Assembly: GCF_000425145.1 (NCBI RefSeq)
Contig: NZ_AULF01000021.1
Span: forward strand, 1-64,000
Reading direction: 5' to 3'
From: Pedobacter glucosidilyticus DSM 23534
GTDB lineage: Bacteria; Bacteroidota; Bacteroidia; Sphingobacteriales; Sphingobacteriaceae
DNA: 64,000 nucleotides
Below the pieces are notes generated by a model that was not told the origin of the DNA, ran no database searches, and was given only the letters and a program-made list of their open reading frames with translations. Shown here in pieces: positions 3,623 to 14,016 of the stretch. Numbering within the stretch: position 1 is the first letter of the stretch; each line of letters opens with the position of its first letter. The position numbers and the translations under genes were made by a program.

Positions 3623-4579
3623 TTATCTCAAATTAAATATTACAGGAAGAGTGTAAGATGATTTTACTGGAACTCCTCTTGTTGTGGCTGGTTCCCAATT
3701 AGCCGATTTTTGTAAAACTCGTATCGCTTCTCTGGTTAAAGTCTCCGATGGAGACTTTATCACCTTAAAACTATTAAGGCTACCATCTGCTTCAACTACA
3801 AAATTCACAATTACTCTGCCCGTTACTTTGGCAATCCTATCCTCTGGAGGGTAACTTATATTATTTCTTAAAAATTCAAATAAAGCTTTCTGACCACCTT
3901 TAAATGTAGCCAAAGTTTCCCTAACGGTATACTTACCAGTTTTTCCATTTATTAATTTATATGTACCAGATTGTAATACACCCTTTGAAAAAACTTCTTC
4001 ATAATCAATCTGCGTTTTTAAATCTTGCAATACCCATAACCCATCTTTATAACCACCTTTATAAGGACCTTTACTTACCCAATTTTCACTTCTAGTTTCT
4101 ACTACTCCGTTACCTTCACCATCTAAGAACTTTCTACCTGTAGAATCTCCCATTTGTAAAAGTTTATAATTGGTTTCTGCCATGTTGTACCTATCTAATG
4201 GTACTTCAAAATAACGATACGATTTTAGCTCTCCGTTTCTGAAATATTCATAAGCAGGGCCAACTAATTTGTTTTCTGCGTAGACTTTAACAGCCTCCTT
4301 TTTCCCATCATCGTAATAAGTAGTAACCTCTCCTTCTAACATAGCTGACTTCGTGGAAGAAGTTCTTCCCGTTCTTTTCAGTGTACCACTTTTATAGTAC
4401 TCAACCAGTTTATGATAAGTTTCTCCAGAATCTGGAGAGCTTATAGTTCTGATATAATCTGCACTATCTTTTTCTTGAACTTGCTTACCGTTTTTCTTGA
4501 AATAGTAGGTGTTATGTTTTTCTTGGGCTTGTGTTAGTTCTACTATTGAAAGTAGAATAATGGTTAGTAATAGTTTCAT
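3623..4579 (-). CDS. Secreted MORN/YwqK-like repeat protein with TonB C-terminal domain, copy 1
   Basis: A 318-residue protein with a signal peptide (residues 1-18, cut before QEKHNTYYF). Residues 60-190 carry repeats such as EYYKSGTLKRTG, YYDDGKKEA and YEYFRNGELKSY, the YxNG pattern of MORN/YwqK-like proteins, then a GGYKDGLW motif. Residues about 220-318 form a TonB_C fold: FLRNNISYPPEDRI, GRVIVNFVVEADGSL, and the closing SYTLPVIFNL. There is no membrane anchor or proline-rich linker, so it is not a classical TonB; a periplasmic role is inferred. It is the most downstream of five tandem paralogues, 11 bp after the next copy. Its function is unknown. Confidence 0.85.
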   Translation of the reverse strand: MKLLLTIILLSIVELTQAQEKHNTYYFKKNGKQVQEKDSADYIRTISSPDSGETYHKLVEYYKSGTLKRTGRTSSTKSAMLEGEVTTYYDDGKKEAVKVYAENKLVGPAYEYFRNGELKSYRYFEVPLDRYNMAETNYKLLQMGDSTGRKFLDGEGNGVVETRSENWVSKGPYKGGYKDGLWVLQDLKTQIDYEEVFSKGVLQSGTYKLINGKTGKYTVRETLATFKGGQKALFEFLRNNISYPPEDRIAKVTGRVIVNFVVEADGSLNSFKVIKSPSETLTREAIRVLQKSANWEPATTRGVPVKSSYTLPVIFNLR

Positions 4580-4590
4580 AAAAGAATCAC

Positions 4591-5547
4591 TTAAAGTTTA
4601 AATACGATTGGCAGACTATAATTTACGCGTACAGCCTTACCTCTATTTTCTCCTGGAGTCCAGTTTGGAGAGTCAGTCATAACACGTAGTGCTTCATTTG
4701 CCAGCTCATCATCTGGCGATCTCATGACCCTTAGGTTGGTTAAACTACCATCTTTTTCTACTGTAAAATTCAAAATTACCCTACCCTGTATTTTATTGGC
4801 TCTAGCAATTGAAGGGTAAACTAGCCTTCTAGAAAGATATTCACTAAATTTATTGCCTCCACCTCTAAATTGAGGTAATTTAAATTTCTCCTTGTAATTG
4901 ATGATTTTTCCATCCTCATCTATTCTTTTCCCACTTATGAATTTACCATGATCATAAAATTCCTCAAAAGAAGTATTAGTTTTAAAATCTCGTTCTTTCC
5001 AAAGACCATTTTTATACCCATTTACATAAAATCCTTCTTCCTGATAATCTGCTGTTTTTAAATCTACTTTACCATTGCCTTCATTATCCAAAAATTTCTT
5101 GCCTAAAACATCATTAACTTCAAGCACTCTAAAATTAGTATCGATATAAGACTTCTCCATATCAGTAGGTTTATCAAAAACTTTAACTAGCTTAATTTGA
5201 CCATTTTCATAAAACTCTTTTTGTTCGCCTAAAAGTTTTCCACTGCTGTAAGACTGTTCTTTCTCTTTGATACCATTTTCATTGTAAACAGTAATAATAC
5301 CTTCTAATTTTATGCTTATAACAGATGAGGTTTTACCACTTCTTTTTGGTTTTCCATTTTTATAAAACTCTTCCAGCTTAAATAATTTTTCATTACCAGT
5401 AATTGCGCTTATAGTTCTGATATAATCTGCGCTATCTTTCTCTTGAACTTCTTTACCGTTTTTATTGAAATAGTAGGTGTTTTGTTTTTCTTGAGCATAG
5501 GTGCTACCTGCTATTAGCATAAGCAGTAGCATCATCAGATTCTTCAT
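4591..5547 (-). CDS. Secreted MORN/YwqK-like repeat protein with TonB C-terminal domain, copy 2
   Basis: 318 residues with signal peptide MKNLMMLLLMLIAGSTYA. YwqK-like repeats include EFYKNGKPKRSG, VYNENGIKEKEQ and EFYENGQIKLVK; the second half has YVNGYKNGLWKERDFK. The TonB_C domain occupies residues about 225-318 (YPSIARANKIQGRVILNFTV, ending SLPIVFKL). The first 45 residues are nearly identical to copy 3, while the middle and C-terminal parts differ. The spacing of 11 bp to copy 1 suggests co-transcription. No partner or ligand can be read from the sequence. Confidence 0.85.
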   Translation of the reverse strand: MKNLMMLLLMLIAGSTYAQEKQNTYYFNKNGKEVQEKDSADYIRTISAITGNEKLFKLEEFYKNGKPKRSGKTSSVISIKLEGIITVYNENGIKEKEQSYSSGKLLGEQKEFYENGQIKLVKVFDKPTDMEKSYIDTNFRVLEVNDVLGKKFLDNEGNGKVDLKTADYQEEGFYVNGYKNGLWKERDFKTNTSFEEFYDHGKFISGKRIDEDGKIINYKEKFKLPQFRGGGNKFSEYLSRRLVYPSIARANKIQGRVILNFTVEKDGSLTNLRVMRSPDDELANEALRVMTDSPNWTPGENRGKAVRVNYSLPIVFKL

Positions 5548-5665
5548 GGTGTTATAGGTTTTATTTTTTATGGTTTTAGGTAAACATTTGTTTAAATATA
5601 GTACAATTTAAAAATTCGCATCAAGTTGACTAAACAATTACCTAGAAAAAGCAATTTTATTAATA

Positions 5666-6622
5666 TCATCTCAAATTAAATAGAATTGGAAGAGTGTAAG
5701 ATGACTTTATTGGAATTCCTCTTTGCAGAGCTGGTTCCCAATTTGGCGACTGCTGTAAAACACGTATTGCTTCTTTTGTTAAAGTCTCAGAAGGAGACTT
5801 TAATACCTTAAAACTATTAAGGCTTCCATCTGCTTCTACTATAAAACTAATTTGAACACTGCCCGTTATTTTTGCTAATTTATCCTCAGTTGGATATCTT
5901 AAATTACCTTTTAAAAATTCAAATAAAGTTTGCTCTCCGTTTTTAAATTTAGCTAAAGTTTGTTTAACAGTATAAACTCCTGTTTTACCATCCGTCAACT
6001 TATAAGTACCAGATTGCAAAACACCTTTAGCATAAATCTCTTCATAAACAATCTGCGTTTTTAAATCTTGCATTTGCCACAAACCATCTTTATAGCCATC
6101 TTTATAAAGGCCTTTTTCTGCCCAGGTTTCACTTCTACTTTCTACCACCCCGTTACCTTCACCATCTAAGAACTTTCTACCTGTAGAATCTCCTATTTGT
6201 AAGGTTTTATAATTTATTTCTACTTTGTTATACTTGGCAGAGGGCACATCATAATAACGATATGATTTTAACTCTTCATTTTTAAAATACTCATAAGCAG
6301 GACCAACTAATCTATTTCCTACATAGTTTTTTAAACTTGCTCTTTTCCCATTATCATAAAAAGTAGTAACTTCTCCTTCTAATTTTACTTCCTCCTTGGA
6401 GGAAGTTGTTCCAATTCTTTTAATAGCACCATTTTTATAATATTCTATCAATTTAAAGTAAGTTTTTCTAGATTCAGGAGAGCTTATAGTTCTGATATAA
6501 TCTGCACTATCTTTGTCTTGAACTTCTTTACCGTTTTTGTTGAAATAGTAGGTGTTTTGTTTTTCTTGAGCAGAGGTGCTACCTGCTATTAGCATAAGCA
6601 GTAGCATGATTACATTCTTCAT
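5666..6622 (-). CDS. Secreted MORN/YwqK-like repeat protein with TonB C-terminal domain, copy 3 (mosaic)
   Basis: 318 residues: signal peptide MKNVIMLLLMLIAGSTSA, YwqK-like repeats (EYYKNGAIKRIG, FYDNGKRASLKN, YEYFKNEELKSY) and a TonB_C domain ending SYTLPILFNLR. The N-terminal ~45 residues match copy 2 almost exactly, whereas from about residue 48 the protein follows copy 1 (shared stretches GPAYEYF, GDSTGRKFLDGEGNGVVE, EADGSLNSFKV and SPSETLT). This mosaic pattern points to recombination or gene conversion between neighbours. The 118-bp gap before copy 2 probably contains a separate promoter. The function is unknown. Confidence 0.85.
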   Translation of the reverse strand: MKNVIMLLLMLIAGSTSAQEKQNTYYFNKNGKEVQDKDSADYIRTISSPESRKTYFKLIEYYKNGAIKRIGTTSSKEEVKLEGEVTTFYDNGKRASLKNYVGNRLVGPAYEYFKNEELKSYRYYDVPSAKYNKVEINYKTLQIGDSTGRKFLDGEGNGVVESRSETWAEKGLYKDGYKDGLWQMQDLKTQIVYEEIYAKGVLQSGTYKLTDGKTGVYTVKQTLAKFKNGEQTLFEFLKGNLRYPTEDKLAKITGSVQISFIVEADGSLNSFKVLKSPSETLTKEAIRVLQQSPNWEPALQRGIPIKSSYTLPILFNLR

Positions 6623-6825
6623 GGTGTTATTGATTTTTATTATCTAAGGTTTTAGGTAAAATGTTTATTTAAATATAAATGCAATTTATCACTTAAAATT
6701 AAGCTGTATCAGCAGCCTTATAAGCTTTTTTGGCAAAAAACTTAAGCTCAAATAAACCATAATGATCTCTCGAATTGGCCAGAGAACAATATTTTTATAT
6801 CGTTCTATTTACTTAACTAAAACAA

Positions 6826-6900
6826 TTAATTATTTAAGCCAAATACAAAAGGGAGATTATCAGATGACTTTATTGGACTTCTTTTTAGCTGCTCAAACCG
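6826..6900 (-). pseudogene. Remnant of the C-terminus of a sixth TonB/MORN paralogue
   Basis: The minus strand reads EQLKRSPIKSSDNLPFVFGL and then stops at 6828-6826. It aligns with the last residues of copy 3 (RGIPIKSSYTLPILFNLR). An in-frame stop lies just upstream, so only the tail survives. It begins immediately after the stop of the lipoprotein gene at 6909, suggesting that gene replaced the body of an ancestral sixth copy. The DNA from 6848 to 6890 is visibly similar to 5692-5735. Confidence 0.65.
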
Positions 6901-6908
6901 AACTCACG

Positions 6909-7325
6909 TTAGTTAAAAATAAATACTAAGTAAGAATAACCACTTATCTCAGGCAATACAGAATAATATTTTAATTGTATTTTAGATTCTTCTGCCACCT
7001 TAAATTTTATATTATCTATAGTTAATTCTTTCGTGTCCCTGTTATAAAAGTAATCTACAATTTTAATAGCTTCCTCTCCCTCACATTTTATGGCGCCATG
7101 GTTAATGGTTAATTTTCCATTTGTTCCAAATTGATAAGTGTCATCCTGCTCGCAGTTTAAAAAAGGATGGTATTGCACATTCGTAGAAGGATTAGATGCC
7201 GTATTTGCATCTGTTAAAGATGGTTTCCATACTTTAGATGTTATGGTAACAGTAGAATTTTCACTCTTTTTGCAGCTTAAAAAGCTCAGGAAGAATATCA
7301 ATAAAAGAATGTTTTTGTTAAGCAT
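6909..7325 (-). CDS. Small lipoprotein of unknown function
   Basis: The open frame starts at 7361, but the ATG at 7325 gives a proper lipoprotein signal, MLNKNILLLIFFLSFLSCKK, so I chose it (138 residues). The mature part contains SKVWKPSLTDANT, a FGTNGKLTINHG segment and ends SGYSYLVFIFN. The length and the alternating beta-type pattern resemble small lipocalin-like lipoproteins of Bacteroidota, but I do not recognise a specific family. It interrupts the tandem TonB/MORN array and abuts the remnant of a lost copy, so it looks like a later arrival. Confidence 0.7.
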   Translation of the reverse strand: MLNKNILLLIFFLSFLSCKKSENSTVTITSKVWKPSLTDANTASNPSTNVQYHPFLNCEQDDTYQFGTNGKLTINHGAIKCEGEEAIKIVDYFYNRDTKELTIDNIKFKVAEESKIQLKYYSVLPEISGYSYLVFIFN

Positions 7326-7385
7326 AGTTATTATAGTTTGGTTAAAATTATCTTTTTTCACAAACGCTATCTGGAAGAAATAATA

Positions 7386-8348
7386 TTACCCTAATTTAAA
7401 TACAATAGGTATATTAAAACTAACTCTAACCGGTTTACCGCTTCTAATACCAGGCTTCCATTTTGGTGATACCATTAAAACCCTTAGTGCTTCTTTATCT
7501 ATGGAGGGAAAAACAGATTGAATAATTTTAAATTCAGTTAAAGTACCATCTTTTTCTACAATAAAATTCATAATTACCCGTCCTTGTTTTCCAGTATCTC
7601 TGGCATCTGCAGGGTAAACAAGGTTTCTTGATAAAAAATCACTAAATGCCTTAAATCCACCTACAAAATCAGGTACTGTATCAACATCAAAAAATAACTC
7701 TAAAGATTTTCCATCATTCTCTTTTCTAACTCTTTGCACCAGTTGTCCTGATCTATACTCTTCTTCTAATGTAAAGCTGTCTTGTCTATTAGAAGATTTC
7801 CAAATTCCATTTTTTAAACCGTTTAAATAATCTCCTTGTAGAGCAAATCCATCTCTATAAATAATATTAAAATGCCCTGTGCCTGTGCTATCTAAAAAGG
7901 AATTGCCTAAAGAATCAGCAAAATAAATAATCTTGCAATGAGATTCCTCCATGTGAAGTTTAACAGGCATTTTATAAATTGCTTTTTCATTTAACACCCC
8001 GTTAGGATAATAAACCTTAAACTCTCCATATTTAAAATTTTTCTGATAAAAACCCATTTCTTTTTTATTTCCATTAGGATAATAGTCTCTGCAATAACCT
8101 TCTAAAATAAGCTTAGGTTCAAAAGAACTTACGTAACCTAATCTTTTAACTTTACCGTTTTTATAATTTTCAATCAGTTCAAAAAATACCTGACCAGAGT
8201 CTGGTTCAGAAATAACTCTTATAAAATCTGCACTGTCTCTTTCTTTAACTAATTCTCCGTTATATTTAAGAAAATAAATATTTTGCCTTTTTTGTGCTGT
8301 TACATTTATGGTAATAAATAATAAAAATATTGTTGTTAATGATTTCAT
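7386..8348 (-). CDS. Secreted MORN/YwqK-like repeat protein with TonB C-terminal domain, copy 4
   Basis: The frame is open from 8402, but the ATG at 8348 begins a good signal peptide (MKSLTTIFLLFITINVTAQ) and avoids overlap with the gene ending at 8350, giving 320 residues. Repeats include NYKNGKVKRLG, YYPNGNKKEMG and YYPNGVLNEK, followed by DYLNGLKNGIW. The TonB_C domain contains YPADARDTGKQGRVIMNF and ends FNIPIVFKLG. It is closest to copy 5 (shared KRQNIYFLK, ERDSADFIR-like and GYC-DYYPNG segments), so copies 4-5 form one subfamily and 1-3 another. Confidence 0.85.
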   Translation of the reverse strand: MKSLTTIFLLFITINVTAQKRQNIYFLKYNGELVKERDSADFIRVISEPDSGQVFFELIENYKNGKVKRLGYVSSFEPKLILEGYCRDYYPNGNKKEMGFYQKNFKYGEFKVYYPNGVLNEKAIYKMPVKLHMEESHCKIIYFADSLGNSFLDSTGTGHFNIIYRDGFALQGDYLNGLKNGIWKSSNRQDSFTLEEEYRSGQLVQRVRKENDGKSLELFFDVDTVPDFVGGFKAFSDFLSRNLVYPADARDTGKQGRVIMNFIVEKDGTLTEFKIIQSVFPSIDKEALRVLMVSPKWKPGIRSGKPVRVSFNIPIVFKLG

Positions 8349-8349
8349 T

Positions 8350-9384
8350 TTAAAAGTTATTTCTATTGGTATTATGGTAGCTATCAAATGAGGATCTTTC
8401 AAATGGATTTTGATATTCTGCTTTCTCTTGTAAGTTAAATACTATTGGAACCGTATAAGAAATCCTAACGAATTTTCCATTTTGTATACCCGGTTTCCAT
8501 TTAGGGCTTTTCGATAATACCCTTAAAGCTTCTTCGCCACAGCCGCCACCAATACCTCTAAGTATTTTCAAATTCGCTAAGGATCCGTCTTTCTCAACAA
8601 CAAAATTTATTATTATTCGTCCTTTTATATTTTGCTCTTTAGCCTCCTTTGGGTAATATAAATTACGACTTAAAAATTCTCCAAATGCTGCATTTCCTCC
8701 AGGAAATTCTGGTAAAGTTTCTCTAGCTTTATATTCAAAAACTTTTCCATCCCTCTCTATTCTTTTTCCATTTCTGAATTGCCCTAACTGATACATTTCT
8801 TCTATGATAGAACCATCAGTAATATCAAATGATTTCCAAAGTCCATATTTTAATCCTTCTCTATAAAACCCTTCCTTAAAAGAACCATTTGTAGAAACCA
8901 TTTTAAACTGTCCTGTACCGGTACTATCAAGAAACGATTTTCCTAAAGAATCTGCCAAATAAGTCACAATACCACCATCAAAAGAGTCTTTAATACTTAT
9001 TGGCGTTTTATAATTTTTTTTCTCTCTCAAGACTCCATTATGATAATAGTATCTAAATAAGCCCACTTTTAAATTTTTCTGATAAAACCCGATTTGTTCT
9101 TTAGCTCCATTTGGATAAAAATCTGTGCAATAACCATCTAAAACCAAATTAGGTAAAAATGAGCTTACATGTCCTAATCTTCGGATTTTTCCATCTTTAT
9201 AATACTCTATCAATTCATAGTTTACCATTCCAGAATCTGGCTCTCTGATAATTCTTATGAAATCTGCGCTGTCTTTTTCTTTAACAGATTTTCCATTTTC
9301 TTTTAAAAAATAAATGTTTTGTCTTTTTTGAGCCGATACTGAAAAAGAAATCAAAAGCACTAATAATAGATACAAGTTTTTCAT
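8350..9384 (-). CDS. Secreted MORN/YwqK-like repeat protein with TonB C-terminal domain, copy 5
   Basis: 344 residues with signal peptide MKNLYLLLVLLISFSVSAQ. YwqK-like repeats EYYKDGKIRRLG, FYPNGAKEQIG and YYHNGVLREKK are followed by GLKYGLWKSF and a TonB_C domain ending SYTVPIVFNL. Unlike the other copies it has about 25 extra residues after that end (from QEKAEYQNPF to NTNRNNF), which run to within one base of copy 4's start. The extension may be accidental read-through into spacer DNA. It is the first gene of the array and starts divergently from the lipoprotein at 9470. Confidence 0.85.
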   Translation of the reverse strand: MKNLYLLLVLLISFSVSAQKRQNIYFLKENGKSVKEKDSADFIRIIREPDSGMVNYELIEYYKDGKIRRLGHVSSFLPNLVLDGYCTDFYPNGAKEQIGFYQKNLKVGLFRYYYHNGVLREKKNYKTPISIKDSFDGGIVTYLADSLGKSFLDSTGTGQFKMVSTNGSFKEGFYREGLKYGLWKSFDITDGSIIEEMYQLGQFRNGKRIERDGKVFEYKARETLPEFPGGNAAFGEFLSRNLYYPKEAKEQNIKGRIIINFVVEKDGSLANLKILRGIGGGCGEEALRVLSKSPKWKPGIQNGKFVRISYTVPIVFNLQEKAEYQNPFERSSFDSYHNTNRNNF

Positions 9385-9469
9385 TTTTAAATTGGTAGAA
9401 TGATTTTATACGTAGTAAATTTATTAATTTGGAATGAAGATTGCTAATATTGAGCTAAATTTTGAATAT

Positions 9470-9988
9470 ATGAAAAAGGTATTAATTTATACACTTTTAG
9501 TGTTTTTATTTTTTACTAGCTGTGCAACTGTTCAATCTGTAGTACGCTCGGTTTTTCCTTATACGGCTACTTTAATCATCCCCGCTGCGAATAGCAGCAA
9601 TAACGCTTTTAGCATCAGTAGCGCTGCCCGCAGTTTCGATCAAATTTTTACCGGACAAACCAATAACAACCAAATTTCACAAGTTCGTATTGCATCAGCT
9701 AGGATAGATGCTATAAGTCCTACAACGCAAAACTTAGGCACTTTCAAGTCGATTAAATTGTATTTGGTAAACGGCAAAGAACAAACTTTAGTAGCTACTA
9801 GAACAGATATTGCAGCTACTGCCGGAAGATCTATTATGCTAGATACTGATAATAGTAAACTGTTGGATGATTATCTTAAAACAGGAACTTCGAGCATTAA
9901 AATGGAGTATGTGCTACAGAACAACTTACAGGTAGACCTTAGTGTTAAAGTAAGTTTAAGCTTTAATGTAGCTACGCCTACTAGATAA
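9470..9988 (+). CDS. Lipoprotein of unknown function
   Basis: The frame opens at 9434, but the ATG at 9470 starts MKKVLIYTLLVFLFFTSCAT, a clear lipoprotein signal with lipobox FTSC, so the protein is taken as 172 residues. The mature part is rich in Ser, Asn and Thr (PAANSSNNAFSISSAARSFD). It has a segment SQVRIASARIDAISPTTQN and an end with alternating beta pattern (SIKMEYVLQNN to SLSFNVATPTR). This looks like an all-beta, membrane-anchored domain. No named family is recognised. It is divergent from the TonB/MORN array and followed by the long non-coding repeat region. Confidence 0.75.
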   Translation: MKKVLIYTLLVFLFFTSCATVQSVVRSVFPYTATLIIPAANSSNNAFSISSAARSFDQIFTGQTNNNQISQVRIASARIDAISPTTQNLGTFKSIKLYLVNGKEQTLVATRTDIAATAGRSIMLDTDNSKLLDDYLKTGTSSIKMEYVLQNNLQVDLSVKVSLSFNVATPTR

Positions 9989-10095
9989 GGTTTTCAAAAA
10001 GTAGAAAGTCAAAAGTACATAGTATAAAGATGCCTAAATAGCGATATTTTAAAGTAGAAAGTACAGCGTATAAAGTATAAAGACCCTAAAGAGCA

Positions 10096-10793
10096 GATAT
10101 TTAGGAACTTCCAATAATGTTTAAACAATCTTTCCGAAGAACGAGGACGGCCTATGAAGATTTGGACGTGAAGTCAAATAAATCTTTTGCAAAAACTTTC
10201 ATTATGCACTGGCGGGAAACAATCCGACGGGTGTTGTAGTAGCTTTCAATATGCAAACCCCTTCACACCACTCAGGATTGTGGATAAAGATTTATTTAGA
10301 CGTAACAACAAATATTCATCAGCCTTGAGTTTTTGGCAACTTTTTTATCAAGAAAAAAGTAGCTAGGGTTGGCCGCCTATGAGGCTGGAAAGCCTTGTGC
10401 GGAGATGCCATTTTAATCTTTAATGATATTAATTATCCGCCTCATGAGCCGGCGGGGCCCATTACTTTTTAGAGGAAAAAAGTAATCAAAATCCTTGATC
10501 AATCCCACAGGAGCCTTTGTCGCACACCCCTTAACACACTCAAAAACAGGGAGCGCTTATTTTTGCTCGTTTATGCTTATTGAAAGTTAGTAAAAACTCG
10601 AACACAAAACCGCATGCGCTATAGGCTTGGTTGTGCAAGATTTTTAATTTCTGCTCCTGTTTTTCGTCTTTCCGGCTCTTGGGGATTGCTCATGCGCTTC
10701 GGGATAGTCTGTTTTTTATGAATGTTTGTTCCTTTCTGGAAGTATCTGTAAGTATAAAGTACTGATTAGAAAGCAGAAAGGCTTTTTAAATCG
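10096..10793. repeat. Tandem ~700-bp non-coding unit, copy 1
   Basis: This unit runs from GATATTTAGGAACTTCC to the next occurrence of the same start, 698 bp on. No open frame of convincing length is seen on either strand. It contains a nested stem: AAATAAATCTTT (10176-10187) pairs with AAAGATTTATTT (10286-10297), ACAATCC (10219-10225) with GGATTGT (10275-10281), and GGTGT (10230-10234) with ACACC (10265-10269). Further right are two hairpins of the form ACTTTTTT..AAAAAAGT that lie in inverted orientation to each other. The 90 bp before the unit are AAAGTAGAAAGTA-type degenerate repeats. Confidence 0.8.
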
Positions 10794-11503
10794 GATATTT
10801 AGGAACTTCCAATAATATTAAACCAAACTTTCCGAAGAACGAAAGACGGCCTATGAAGATTTGGAAGTATAGGTAAATAAATCTTTTGCAAAAACTTTCA
10901 TTATGCACTGGCGGGAGGGAAACAATCCGACGGGTGTTGTAGTAGCTTTCAATATGCAAAAACATTCACACCACTCAGGATTGTGCATAAAGATTTATTT
11001 AGACGTAACAACAAATATTCATCAGCCTTGAGTTTTTGGCAACTTTTTTATCAAGAAAAAAGTGGCTAGCGTTGGCCGCCTATGAAGCCGGAGAGCCTTG
11101 AGCGCTAAGCCTACTAATTCAAAGATCTTTAATGATATTAATTATCCGCCTCAAGAGCCGGCGGGGCCCATTACTTTTTAGAGGAAAAAAGTAATCAAAA
11201 TCCTTGATCAATCCCACAGGAGCCTTTGTCGCACACCCCTTAACACACTCAAAAACAGGGAGCGCTCATTTTTGCTCGTTTATGCTTATTGAAAGTTAGT
11301 AAAAACTCGAACACAAAACCGCATGCGCTATAGGCTTGGTTGTGCAAGATTTTTAATTTCTGCTCCTGTTTTTCGTCTTTCCGGCTCTTGGGGATTGCTC
11401 ATGCGCTTCGGGATAGTCTGTTTTTTTATGAATGGTTGCTCTTTTCTGGAAGTATCTGTAAGTATAAAGTACTGATTAGAAAGCAGAAAGGCTTTTTAAA
11501 TCG
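10794..11503. repeat. Tandem ~700-bp non-coding unit, copy 2
   Basis: Second copy, 710 bp. The same nested stem spans 10875-11000. Relative to copy 1 the loops and spacers differ (for example GGCGGGAGGGAAACAATCC against GGCGGGAAACAATCC), while all three paired segments are kept. It is nearly identical to copy 3. No coding frame is supported. Confidence 0.85.
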
Positions 11504-12205
11504 GATATTTAGGAACTTCCAATAATATTAAACCAAACTTTCCGAAGAACGAAAGACGGCCTATGAAGATTTGGAAGTATAGGTAAATAAATCTTTTGCA
11601 AAAACTTTCATTATGCACTGGCGGGAGGGAAACAATCCGACGGGTGTTGTAGAAGCTTTCAATATGCAAAAACATTCACACCACTCAGGATTGTGCATAA
11701 AGATTTATTTAGACGTAACAACAAATATTCATCAGCCTTGAGTTTTTGGCAACTTTTTTATCAAGAAAAAAGTGGCTAGTGTTGGCCGCCTATGAGGCCG
11801 GAGAGCCTTGAGCGCTAAGCCTACTAATTCAAAGATCTTTAATGATAATAATTATCCGCCTCAAGAGCCGGCGGGGCCCATTACTTTTTAGAGGAAAAAA
11901 GTAATCAAAATCCTTGATCAATCCCACAGGAGCCTTTGTCGCACAAGGCTTACCCACACTCAAAAACAGGGAGCGCTTATTTTTGCTCGTTTATGCTTAT
12001 TGAAAAAAGCTCGAACACAAAACCGCATGCGCTATAGGCTTGGAAGTGCAAGATTTTTTAATTTCTGCTATTGTTTTTTCGTTTTTCCGGCTCTGGGGGA
12101 TTGCCCATGCTTTTCGGGATAGCCTGTTTTTTTATGAATGGTTGCTCTTTTCTGGAGTATAAAGTAAAAAGTACAGAGTAGAAAGTATAAAGAACCTAAA
12201 ATTGA
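11504..12205. repeat. Tandem ~700-bp non-coding unit, copy 3
   Basis: Third copy, 702 bp, with the nested stem at 11585-11710. The first 450 bp are almost the same as copy 2; the last 250 bp diverge (a deletion near 12005 and changes such as GCACAAGGCTTACCC). This gradient suggests copies 2 and 3 duplicated recently. The 61-codon plus-strand frame at 11340-11525 spans the copy 2/3 junction and is not conserved, so it is not called. Confidence 0.85.
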
Positions 12206-12515
12206 GATTTTTAGGAACTGCCTTTAAATATAAAACTCATCTTTCCTAAGAACGAGGGATGGCCTATGGAGATTTGGAAGTGTAGTCAAATAAATCTTTT
12301 GTATAAACTTTCATAAAACACTAGCAGGAAACAATCCGACGGGTGTTGTAAATACTTTCATCAAGCAAAACCCTTCACACCACTTAGGATTGTGGATAAA
12401 GATTTATTTAGACGTAACAACAAATATTCATCAGCCTTGAGTTTTTGGCAACTTTTTTATCAAGAAAAAAGTGGCTAGGGTTGGCCGCCTATGAGGCCGG
12501 AAAGCCTTGTGCGTA
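12206..12515. repeat. Tandem non-coding unit, copy 4 (partial and divergent)
   Basis: The first ~310 bp of a fourth unit. The stem at 12288-12409 keeps all three paired segments even though the intervening loop has changed strongly (TAAATACTTTCATCAAGC replaces GTAGTAGCTTTCAATATGC). The unit breaks off after GCCGGAAAGCCTTGTGCG, exactly where the second inverted arm should follow. AAAGTAAAAAGTACAGAGTAG repeats precede it at 12157-12190. Confidence 0.75.
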
Positions 12516-12578
12516 ATTGCCCAATTTTAAGACATATAACAGCGTTAAAGATATTAAAATCCTTAAACCCAATTACCT

Positions 12579-12770
12579 TTATTTTTTTAACATCACATTT
12601 ATCATAGAAGAAACACCAGCCTTTACAAATAAACCAGCTTTACTTTTATGATCTGCTGCAAAAGCTTCTTCTGTTTGCTGTTGTTTCAATCCTAATGAAA
12701 GTCCTAAAATTAAAATTACAGGAACTATTAACATGATAAATGGCGATATAGTGGTTGATATTTTTTTCAT
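12579..12770 (-). CDS. Small single-pass membrane protein, hypothetical
   Basis: The frame starts at 12812, but the ATG at 12770 (MKKISTTISP) puts a hydrophobic helix (FIMLIVPVILILGLSLGL) directly after a short charged N-terminus, so 63 residues are annotated. A QQQTEEAFAADHKSKAG linker and an amphipathic end (VSSMINVMLKK) follow. The helix could be a signal anchor. I recognise no family. It lies alone between the repeat region and the divergent LytS-type kinase. Confidence 0.5.
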   Translation of the reverse strand: MKKISTTISPFIMLIVPVILILGLSLGLKQQQTEEAFAADHKSKAGLFVKAGVSSMINVMLKK

Positions 12771-12990: not shown

Positions 12991-14016
12991 ATGAACTGGA
13001 GAAAGAAAATAATGCTACACGCTATGGTATGGGCTTTTTTAATTGCCCTATTTACCTTGGTAGCTTCTGGCGGATTTAACTCTAGCAAGGGTTTTTACAT
13101 CCATTTCATCAATATGTCTATCCTTAACGTGATTATCTTTTACGTTAACCTCTATATCATTATCCCGGCAACACTAAACAAAAGGAAGTTCTTTTTATGG
13201 TTTTTCTCTTGCTCAGCAGTAGTGATATTGTTTACATTAATAAAATATGCCGAAAGCTTCTATATGTTTAAGCTGAGCAATTTAGACATCACCATAGAGG
13301 GTAAAAAAATAGCCGATAACGAGTTTTGGGCTAATATCATTTCCTTCTTTCTTACCAATGGCTTCTTTATATTCTTAAGTACTGTTTATAAATTTACTGT
13401 CGACTGGTTTTTTAATGAGAAAGAAAAAAGCGATTTAGAAAAGCAAAGTTTATCGGCAGAGTTGGCCTTTCTAAAATCGCAGATTAACCCCCACTTTTTA
13501 TTTAACTCGCTAAATAATATTTACTCTTTAGCCTATCAAAAATCTGATGCAACACCCAACGCTATTCTAAAACTATCAGAAATTATGCGCTATATGCTCT
13601 ACGAGAGTAATGATAGCAGGGTAAATTTGGCTAAAGAGATTAATTATCTACAAAGTTATATAGAGCTTCAAAAGTTAAGGTTTAGAGAAGGCGCTCATGT
13701 TGTTTTAGAGGTAGAGGGCGAAGTTAAAGACCAAGTTATTGTACCCTTAATTTTAATATCTTTTGTAGAAAACGCTTTTAAACACGGTGTAGCTACTGAT
13801 GAACGTAACCCTATTTATATCAATATTTCGCTGTTTGAAAACACCCTACTTTTTACGCTACGTAACCTTAAGAACAAGCAAAACAAAGATCAAACTGGTG
13901 GTATAGGTATGGTAAATGTAAAAAGAAGATTAGACCTCACCTATCCACAGCAATATAAACTTACCGTAGAAGATGGCGAAGAGCATTATTTCTGCGAATT
14001 ATATTTAAATTTATAG
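12991..14016 (+). CDS. LytS-family sensor histidine kinase
   Basis: 341 residues, with four hydrophobic segments in the first ~130 (around residues 8-26, 38-58, 68-88 and 108-128), then a His_kinase (PF06580) domain. The phospho-acceptor histidine is in LKSQINPHFLFNSLNNIYSL (about residue 168). The ATP-binding part shows SFVENAFKHGV and GGIGMVNVKRRLDLTYPQQY. The pair with the LytTR regulator starting 2 bp downstream forms a standard Bacteroidota two-component system acting from the inner membrane. No signal is apparent from the sequence; the neighbours do not identify a target. Confidence 0.93.
   Translation: MNWRKKIMLHAMVWAFLIALFTLVASGGFNSSKGFYIHFINMSILNVIIFYVNLYIIIPATLNKRKFFLWFFSCSAVVILFTLIKYAESFYMFKLSNLDITIEGKKIADNEFWANIISFFLTNGFFIFLSTVYKFTVDWFFNEKEKSDLEKQSLSAELAFLKSQINPHFLFNSLNNIYSLAYQKSDATPNAILKLSEIMRYMLYESNDSRVNLAKEINYLQSYIELQKLRFREGAHVVLEVEGEVKDQVIVPLILISFVENAFKHGVATDERNPIYINISLFENTLLFTLRNLKNKQNKDQTGGIGMVNVKRRLDLTYPQQYKLTVEDGEEHYFCELYLNL

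What the first reader, a model, noticed from the sequence alone, without database searches (positions are those of the whole stretch)
10096..12515. Four tandem ~700-bp non-coding units sharing a three-level nested stem
Seen in sequence: head-to-tail units with periods 698, 710 and 702 bp and a partial fourth. In every copy, AAATAAATCTTT pairs with AAAGATTTATTT (12 bp), enclosing ACAATCC/GGATTGT and GGTGT/ACACC. Copy 4 has a quite different apical loop but keeps all three paired segments, as expected for selection on a fold. No frame is conserved. Inference: a structured RNA or DNA element present as a tandem array, or a decayed mobile element. I know no described class that fits.
Basis: partly seen in the sequence, partly recalled or inferred. 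Interest (0 to 1): 0.78.

Follow-up and report, generated by a model that had tools for sequence, protein, structure and literature searches.

The report
Dispersed hairpin DNA repeat in Pedobacter
The four copies are one local array of a long hairpin-forming, non-coding repeat scattered through this Pedobacter-like genome and its relatives, whose base pairing has been kept by matching mutations, so the fold matters, most likely for how the repeat spreads.

Summary
In detail: three ~700-bp units plus a partial fourth (periods 698, 710, 702), each with the nested stem, and no open frame through a unit. But the array is one site of a dispersed family. The genome holds about 30 copies of the hairpin module (A, ~190 nt), often alternating with a second module (B). 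A covariance model finds A in 50 of 251 genomes of the family (7 of 25 genera) and, weakly, in 4 genomes outside the family among 295 of the class. The fold is larger than reported (42 pairs, with an outermost helix) and strongly supported by compensatory changes: 24 of 42 pairs in one alignment, 32 of 42 in a second. No Rfam family matches. At one orthologous site of a genus I read no copy, one copy, eight tandem copies, or a copy with the hairpin interior missing, so copies come and go. I read it as a non-autonomous, REP/MITE-like mobile repeat that needs its hairpin as DNA, with tandem arrays made by recombination. The mobilising enzyme is unknown, no clean insertion footprint was found, and an RNA function is neither shown nor excluded. 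At 17 RAYT transposase genes read, A is not the flanking repeat, apart from one fragment.

The parts
9998..10102 (+). A/T-rich tag of degenerate ~7-bp repeats (AAGTANA-like) that precedes units; two ~52-bp copies right after the stop codon of the upstream gene
   Evidence: D9; the same tag (unit about 664-700) lies next to stop codons at other loci, e.g. L010, L071, L095
10144..10336 (+). hairpin module A, copy 1
   Evidence: model R1, 218.6 bits
10339..10360 (+). T-rich hairpin ACTTTTTT/AAAAAAGT just 3' of module A, copy 1 (further copies start at 11042, 11752, 12451)
   Evidence: sequence; the copy at 11042-11063 forms in the fold
10416..10715 (+). module B, copy 1
   Evidence: D2/D5; B elsewhere
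10843..11039 (+). hairpin module A, copy 2
   Evidence: R1, 207.1 bits; fold
11125..11424 (+). module B, copy 2 (99% identical to copy 1)
   Evidence: D2
11553..11749 (+). hairpin module A, copy 3
   Evidence: R1, 209.3 bits
11835..12150 (+). module B, copy 3 (end approximate)
   Evidence: D5-D8
12256..12448 (+). hairpin module A, copy 4, terminal copy of the array
   Evidence: R1, 221.1 bits; a copy of A also lies upstream of this kinase gene in G012 and G013
9434..9988 (+). upstream neighbour gene, 184 aa, no Pfam match at E 0.001
12991..14016 (+). downstream neighbour gene, sensor histidine kinase (PF06580), followed by a LytTR response regulator

Best explanation
The window holds a tandem array of a non-coding, non-autonomous mobile repeat. 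SHOWN: module A is a ~190-nt imperfect hairpin of stacked helices (outer GGC...GCC with ATGAAGATTTG, then AAATAAATCTTT, ACAATCC, GGTGT) followed by a T-rich hairpin; it is dispersed in intergenic DNA of this genome and of a patchy set of Bacteroidia; pairing is kept by compensatory changes; copies appear, vanish and multiply at orthologous sites. INFERRED: the hairpin is needed as DNA (extruded or single-stranded) by an unidentified trans-acting machinery that copies or moves A, with or without B; after landing, direct repeats recombine unequally, giving tandem arrays, swapped flanks and homogenised copies. The window array grew by at least one duplication of one ~710-bp period.
For: Dispersal: 79 matching pieces of the unit in the own genome; 36 model matches, of which 30 are own-strand copies and 6 palindrome echoes; 50 of 251 family genomes, 47 of 236 good ones. 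Covariation: 51-copy MAFFT alignment, 94.6% of cells paired, 24 of 42 pairs with two-sided change, 0 of 500 shuffles as high on any measure, slid controls 36-45% paired; 37 distinct copies of a second set, 88.9% paired, 32 of 42 pairs (fitted to the model; no locus shared with the first set, but G002 and G018 gave copies to both; 15 of its 40 copies are from the window's genus). Gain, loss and amplification: beside one gene of genus g14, of 16 orthologous loci read 3 carry one A, one carries 8 tandem A, one keeps both ends of A without the hairpin interior, one may be a remnant, and 10 have none. In G013 a 1.38-kb intergenic stretch with an A-B-A array stands where three relatives have 44-54 bp; in G000 an array stands where three relatives have ~950 bp of other sequence. 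Turnover: for 42 of 58 copies in 15 orthologous groups the nearest copy lies at another locus (a locus in two groups counts twice). Of 27 same-locus pairs stems differ at 68 of 2226 and loops at 362 of 2430 sites, but among the 5 mutual-nearest, most surely vertical pairs it is 8 of 378 against 15 of 433, p 0.29, and the old pair L070/L098 has 6 stem and 4 loop changes: weak protection in place, as expected if the constraint acts on spreading. Distinct G.T states do not clearly exceed A.C (28 v 22 and 15 v 15; in well-paired columns 26 v 21 and 11 v 9), as expected if the fold is not read only as RNA of one strand.
Against: No mobilising protein was identified: none of 20 proteins scanned near arrays (10 of the window, 10 of L132, L135, L136) has a transposase, integrase or reverse transcriptase domain, though they are not all direct neighbours. 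No clean empty site with a target duplication was seen; in the L067 case about 160 bp left and 75 bp right of the array are foreign as well. Tandem growth and gene conversion could explain much of the spread without transposition. Results that lean to RNA or to selection in place: pooled over cells G.T exceeds A.C (121 v 85; 58 v 38), single-copy states are 9 v 4 in both halves, and the 11 one-way nearest same-locus pairs differ at 22 of 882 stem against 61 of 975 loop sites, p 7e-5. Absence of A in many family genomes rests on a search that scored 10 candidates per genome. G000 and G010 have N runs or contig ends in the repeats, so swapped flanks may be assembly errors.
Confidence: 0.55

Rival explanations
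1. A is a structured RNA acting at the 3' end of transcripts (terminator or mRNA stabiliser). The hairpin base GGC/GCC followed by TTGATTTTTT resembles a large intrinsic terminator read from the upstream gene.
For: In the close clade (G000, G010, G012, G013) 59 repeat clusters were placed: 28 lie between convergent genes, 16 between co-directional genes on the same strand as them, 4 on the opposite strand, 5 between divergent genes, 6 lacked a neighbour (many loci are orthologous, so not independent). At least 5 T follow the stem in 60 of 114 scored copies, of 131 given. RNA fold z -2.36 on this strand. Pooled G.T over A.C cells 121 v 85 and single-copy states 9 v 4 twice. Stem protection in 11 one-way nearest same-locus pairs, p 7e-5.
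Against: The placement rule fails elsewhere: of 55 clusters chosen in other genomes (some loci entered twice) 16 same/same, 11 opposite/opposite, 6 convergent, 12 divergent, 10 without one neighbour. 54 of 114 scored copies lack a 5-T run. Distinct G.U against A.C states are near parity. The strand folds at least as unusually as DNA (z -3.84; other energy parameters). The terminator scan found no site at the hairpin, though its loop limit would exclude it.
Confidence: 0.22
2. A-B is the non-coding remnant of a larger autonomous element (transposon or retroelement) whose gene has been lost here.
For: B lies just 5' of A also in another genus (L132, G018) and in a more distant genome of the same genus (L192, G001), so B-A is an old composite; ends are modular.
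Against: The B-A pairs are too close together for a gene; no Pfam match to mobility proteins in the ORFs tested; no phage match and one 46-bp plasmid match; the fold is maintained, not decaying.
Confidence: 0.12
3. A and B are chromosomal sites for a DNA-binding or recombination protein (like BIME sites for gyrase or IHF, recalled), kept by the host and spread only by recombination.
For: Swapped flanks between loci of G000 and G012/G013, at repeats; turnover of copies between loci.
Against: Patchy presence: 201 of 251 family genomes had no match, G011 and G017 of the same genus among them (10 candidates scored per genome; G017 has one weak DNA match, G011 none), so the host lineage does not need it.
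Confidence: 0.08

Closest known systems
REP/BIME sequences mobilised by TnpA-REP (RAYT)
   Same: Dispersed, extragenic, palindromic, occurring singly and in arrays, no coding capacity
   Different: A is ~190 nt with stacked helices, against 20-40 bp (abstract of PMC3733652, seen in a search listing); at 17 RAYT-like genes read it is not the flanking repeat, apart from one fragment
MITEs (non-autonomous relatives of insertion sequences; recalled)
   Same: Short, non-coding, many copies, complementary ends, patchy distribution
   Different: No related transposase or insertion sequence found; target duplication not seen; stem has covarying inner helices
Pedo-repair RNA motif (RF01715; listed for Pedobacter in PMC2864571, passages seen)
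   Same: Structured motif reported from Pedobacter
   Different: Its Rfam model gives no match to the window at gathering, nor to 9900-12700 at E up to 5
Intrinsic terminators
   Same: Stem followed by a T-run in about half of the scored copies; often 3' of genes in the close clade
   Different: Far larger hairpin; placement rule not kept in other genomes

Membership tests
REP/BIME with RAYT | 20-40 bp palindrome with GTAG or CGTC tag | tested here: not met
   length: A is ~190 nt; the tag was not searched for
REP/BIME with RAYT | cognate repeats immediately flank a tnpA-REP gene | tested here: not met
   17 RAYT-like genes of 11 genomes, chosen from the PF01797 matches: 13 have neither a unit nor a model match in the stretch held, 3 (L190, L192, L139) have one 2.2-2.5 kb away, 1 (L132, G018) has a fragment of the 3' end of A 83 bp away; flanks shown carry other palindromes by eye; flanks held are short on one side for L139 (45 bp) and L178 (452 bp)
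REP/BIME with RAYT | extragenic, high copy | tested here: met
   about 30 A copies in the own genome, between genes at the loci laid out
MITE | terminal inverted repeats shared with an autonomous element | tested here: inconclusive
   GGC.../...GCC ends pair; no autonomous relative found
MITE | target-site duplication at an empty site | tested here: inconclusive
   orthologous empty sites exist but flanks are too diverged or replaced
structured RNA family | covariation-supported secondary structure | tested here: met
structured RNA family | stable transcript | not testable with these tools
   no RNA-seq
structured RNA family | member of a described Rfam family | tested here: not met
   only a tRNA elsewhere in the window at gathering; three U4 hits below cut-off at E 0.22-2.3
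intrinsic terminator | orientation fixed to the upstream gene | tested here: not met
   tendency in the close clade, not in other genomes

The most novel reading that the evidence does not exclude
A is the substrate of an undescribed mobility system of Bacteroidia that recognises a long stacked hairpin in folded DNA (or in an RNA intermediate), works without terminal repeats of a known insertion sequence, and produces head-to-tail concatemers directly, for example by rolling-circle copying, rather than by later recombination.
Probability: 0.22. Interest if true: 0.8.

Novelty: new variant of a known kind. Interest (0 to 1): 0.52.

Why it matters
A repeat family with a very clear covariation signal, found in at least seven genera of one family and weakly beyond it, has no Rfam match, and my literature searches (open-access PMC only) showed no description of it. 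It would make testable whether long hairpin repeats move as folded DNA, and what enzyme does it. It also marks repeat-rich sites where drafts break and flanks look exchanged.

Tried and rejected
Coding remnant: a frame in A reads AYEDLEV, which recalled the start of four-helix-bundle (S23/IVS) proteins; Pfam gave no such match, rejected. Known RNA: Rfam at gathering and at E up to 5; the U4 hits are on the opposite strand and below cut-off, rejected. RAYT as mobiliser: the Y1 transposase family is present in 16 of 16 genomes including G011 and G017, which have no model match, so presence does not discriminate; flanks carry other palindromes. Five more Y1 regions (L189, L191, L193-L195) were fetched and have no model match, but their genes were not read. 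B as a second covarying hairpin: 54 copies folded; many pairs there are invariant or partly unpaired, so I make no structural claim for B. Plasmid or phage carriage: one 46-bp plasmid match, no phage match. tRNA at the g14 site: suspected from repeated hits, ARAGORN found none in 8 loci. B across the class: 4 of 294 other genomes, matches of 27-37 bp, with 2 candidates scored per genome. G.T/A.C test: distinct states near parity, cells and single-copy states lean to G.T, and no yardstick from a known RNA was run. Rare versus common variants, stem:loop 21:34 against 26:85, Fisher p 0.066: suggestive only; rows dropped there were truncated copies and L028. One search used 15 hand-picked orthologous groups (27 pairs); one search scored 114 of 131 copies for the T-run.

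Full report
WHAT IS THERE. The array is as described. Unit starts are 10096, 10794, 11504 and 12206. Each full unit is a hairpin module A, a T-rich hairpin, a module B and an A/T-rich tag of degenerate 7-bp repeats. Copies 1 and 2 are nearly identical over B and copies 2 and 3 over A, so about one period was duplicated recently. Flanking genes are ordinary: a 184-aa gene without Pfam match upstream, and a PF06580 histidine kinase with a LytTR regulator downstream.

WHERE IT COMES FROM. The genome is a 4.02-Mb draft in 62 contigs.

DISPERSAL. The unit hits 79 pieces of the own genome. Model R1 gives 36 matches, of which 6 are opposite-strand echoes of the palindrome; of the other 30, 27 score 120 bits or more (150 candidates scored). 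By DNA, 24 of 60 genomes (the own genome counted) match. By model, 50 of 251 genomes of the family match, in 7 of 25 genera (stricter filters, 10 candidates scored per genome, so copy numbers are capped and absences are soft), and 7 of 295 of the class (8 scored per genome). Four of those seven lie outside the family: G492, G437, G281 and G042, best scores 60, 53, 46 and 38 bits. By eye their loci keep a long outer stem and a CTTGA-plus-T-run at its 3' base (residue-level alignment seen for G492 only).

THE FOLD. RNAalifold on a MAFFT alignment of 51 copies gave one long hairpin; I kept 42 pairs and dropped 10 weak ones. On that alignment 94.6% of cells pair, 24 pairs show change on both sides and 0 of 500 shuffles reach any of the five measures; sliding partners by 1-3 columns drops pairing to 36-45%. 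The structure was derived from the same alignment. On a second set of 40 matches (37 distinct rows), none from a locus of the first, 88.9% pair and 32 pairs change on both sides, including all 13 of helix 4, the AAATAAATCTTT helix. That set was fitted to the model, 15 of its 40 copies are from the window's genus, and G002 and G018 gave copies to both sets. Single-sequence folds of copy 2 give the same hairpin: z -2.36 as RNA and -3.84 as DNA on the + strand, -2.08 as RNA on the - strand.

MODULES AND ARRAYS. Loci of four close genomes read mostly as A and B in turn, with A at the 3' end, gaps and alternative 3' ends. In another genus (L132) and in G001 (L192), B lies directly 5' of A, so B-A is an old pair; elsewhere A stands alone, or forms an array of eight at ~313 bp (L134).

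GAIN AND LOSS. In genus g14, 16 orthologous loci upstream of one gene (it looks like a DUF1304 gene; name recalled, not tested) were read: one A in L112, L228 and L229, eight in L134, both ends of A without the hairpin interior in L230, a possible remnant in L236, and none in the other ten. The model was run on 14 of the 16, where the best score at a locus without a full A was 14.8 bits (L230); L112 and L134 were scored. The 14 were chosen from the 42 of 60 genomes with any match. In G013 a 1.38-kb intergenic stretch with an A-B-A array stands where G000, G010 and G012 have 44-54 bp between the same genes, but about 160 bp left and 75 bp right of it are also foreign to them. In G000 an array stands where G010, G012 and G013 carry ~950 bp that by eye encode a small toxin-antitoxin-like pair (not tested against Pfam).

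REARRANGEMENT. Comparing flanks, several G000 loci, the window among them, carry the left flank of one G012/G013 locus and the right flank of another. This fits recombination between repeats, but draft assemblies with gaps in repeats could produce the same picture.

SELECTION: WHERE DOES IT ACT? At 27 same-locus pairs stems differ at 68 of 2226 and loops at 362 of 2430 sites. Yet for 42 of 58 copies in these groups the most similar copy lies at another locus, so copies are replaced or converted. Among 5 mutual-nearest pairs stems differ at 8 of 378 and loops at 15 of 433 sites (p 0.29); among 11 one-way nearest pairs it is 22 of 882 and 61 of 975 (p 7e-5; pairs share copies). The old pair L070/L098 has 6 stem and 4 loop changes. 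Rare variants are less depleted in stems than common ones, p 0.066. I read this as constraint mainly on copies that spread; some protection in place is not excluded and nothing here is proven.

RNA OR DNA? An RNA fold tolerates G.U but not A.C. Cells lean that way (121 v 85; 58 v 38), and so do states seen in a single copy (9 v 4 in the close set and 9 v 4 in the distant set). Distinct states, which count events better, are near parity (28 v 22, 15 v 15; in well-paired columns 26 v 21, 11 v 9). Placement 3' of same-strand genes is a tendency in the close clade and not elsewhere. A terminator or 3'-UTR role is therefore unlikely to be the shared function of the family, though it may be a local side effect.

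MOBILISER. None found. RAYT-like or other Y1 genes are in each of 16 genomes tested. Of 17 such genes read in 11 genomes, 13 have no unit or model match in the stretch held, 3 have one 2.2-2.5 kb away and one (G018) has a 3' fragment of A 83 bp away. PMC6006769 (passages seen) reports a Bacteroidetes-dominated TnpA-REP subclass 2.6 flanked by atypical secondary structures; the genes here carry similar motifs by eye, which was not tested.

KNOWN OR NEW. PMC2864571 (passages seen) lists a Pedobacter motif, Pedo-repair; its model does not match. PMC12306157 (term search only) does not mention Pedobacter. My searches of the open-access library found no description (listings only except the papers named). 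I file it as a new variant of the known kind 'dispersed palindromic repeat', not as a member of REP or MITE families, since defining features failed or stayed open.

Noticed in passing
L014:3085-4504 against L225, L226, L227: Between the same two genes G000 has the repeat array while three relatives have ~950 bp that by eye encode a small toxin-antitoxin-like pair.
   Followed up: partly
L230 (G127), ~460-490: Hairpin interior of A missing, leaving GGCCTCA next to GCCTTGATTTTT, as slippage across a hairpin would leave.
   Followed up: partly
L134:2771-5310: Eight tandem A modules at ~313-bp spacing (one interval 469 bp) at a site where three related species read have one.
   Followed up: yes
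L178-L188, L190, L192, L196, L197: Pedobacter and related genomes carry RAYT-like genes flanked by palindromes that differ between genes.
   Followed up: partly
window 3623-9384: Run of minus-strand genes; the three of these tested have TonB_C and weak MORN_2 matches.
   Followed up: no
window 9998-10102 and next to stop codons in L010, L031, L071, L095: Degenerate 7-bp tandem tag (AAGTANA-like) next to stop codons, in L031 without the rest of the repeat.
   Followed up: no
L068, L069, L096, L098, L026, L215: A CCTGCCTGCC-type palindrome sits just 3' of the stem of some A modules, as a nested repeat.
   Followed up: no
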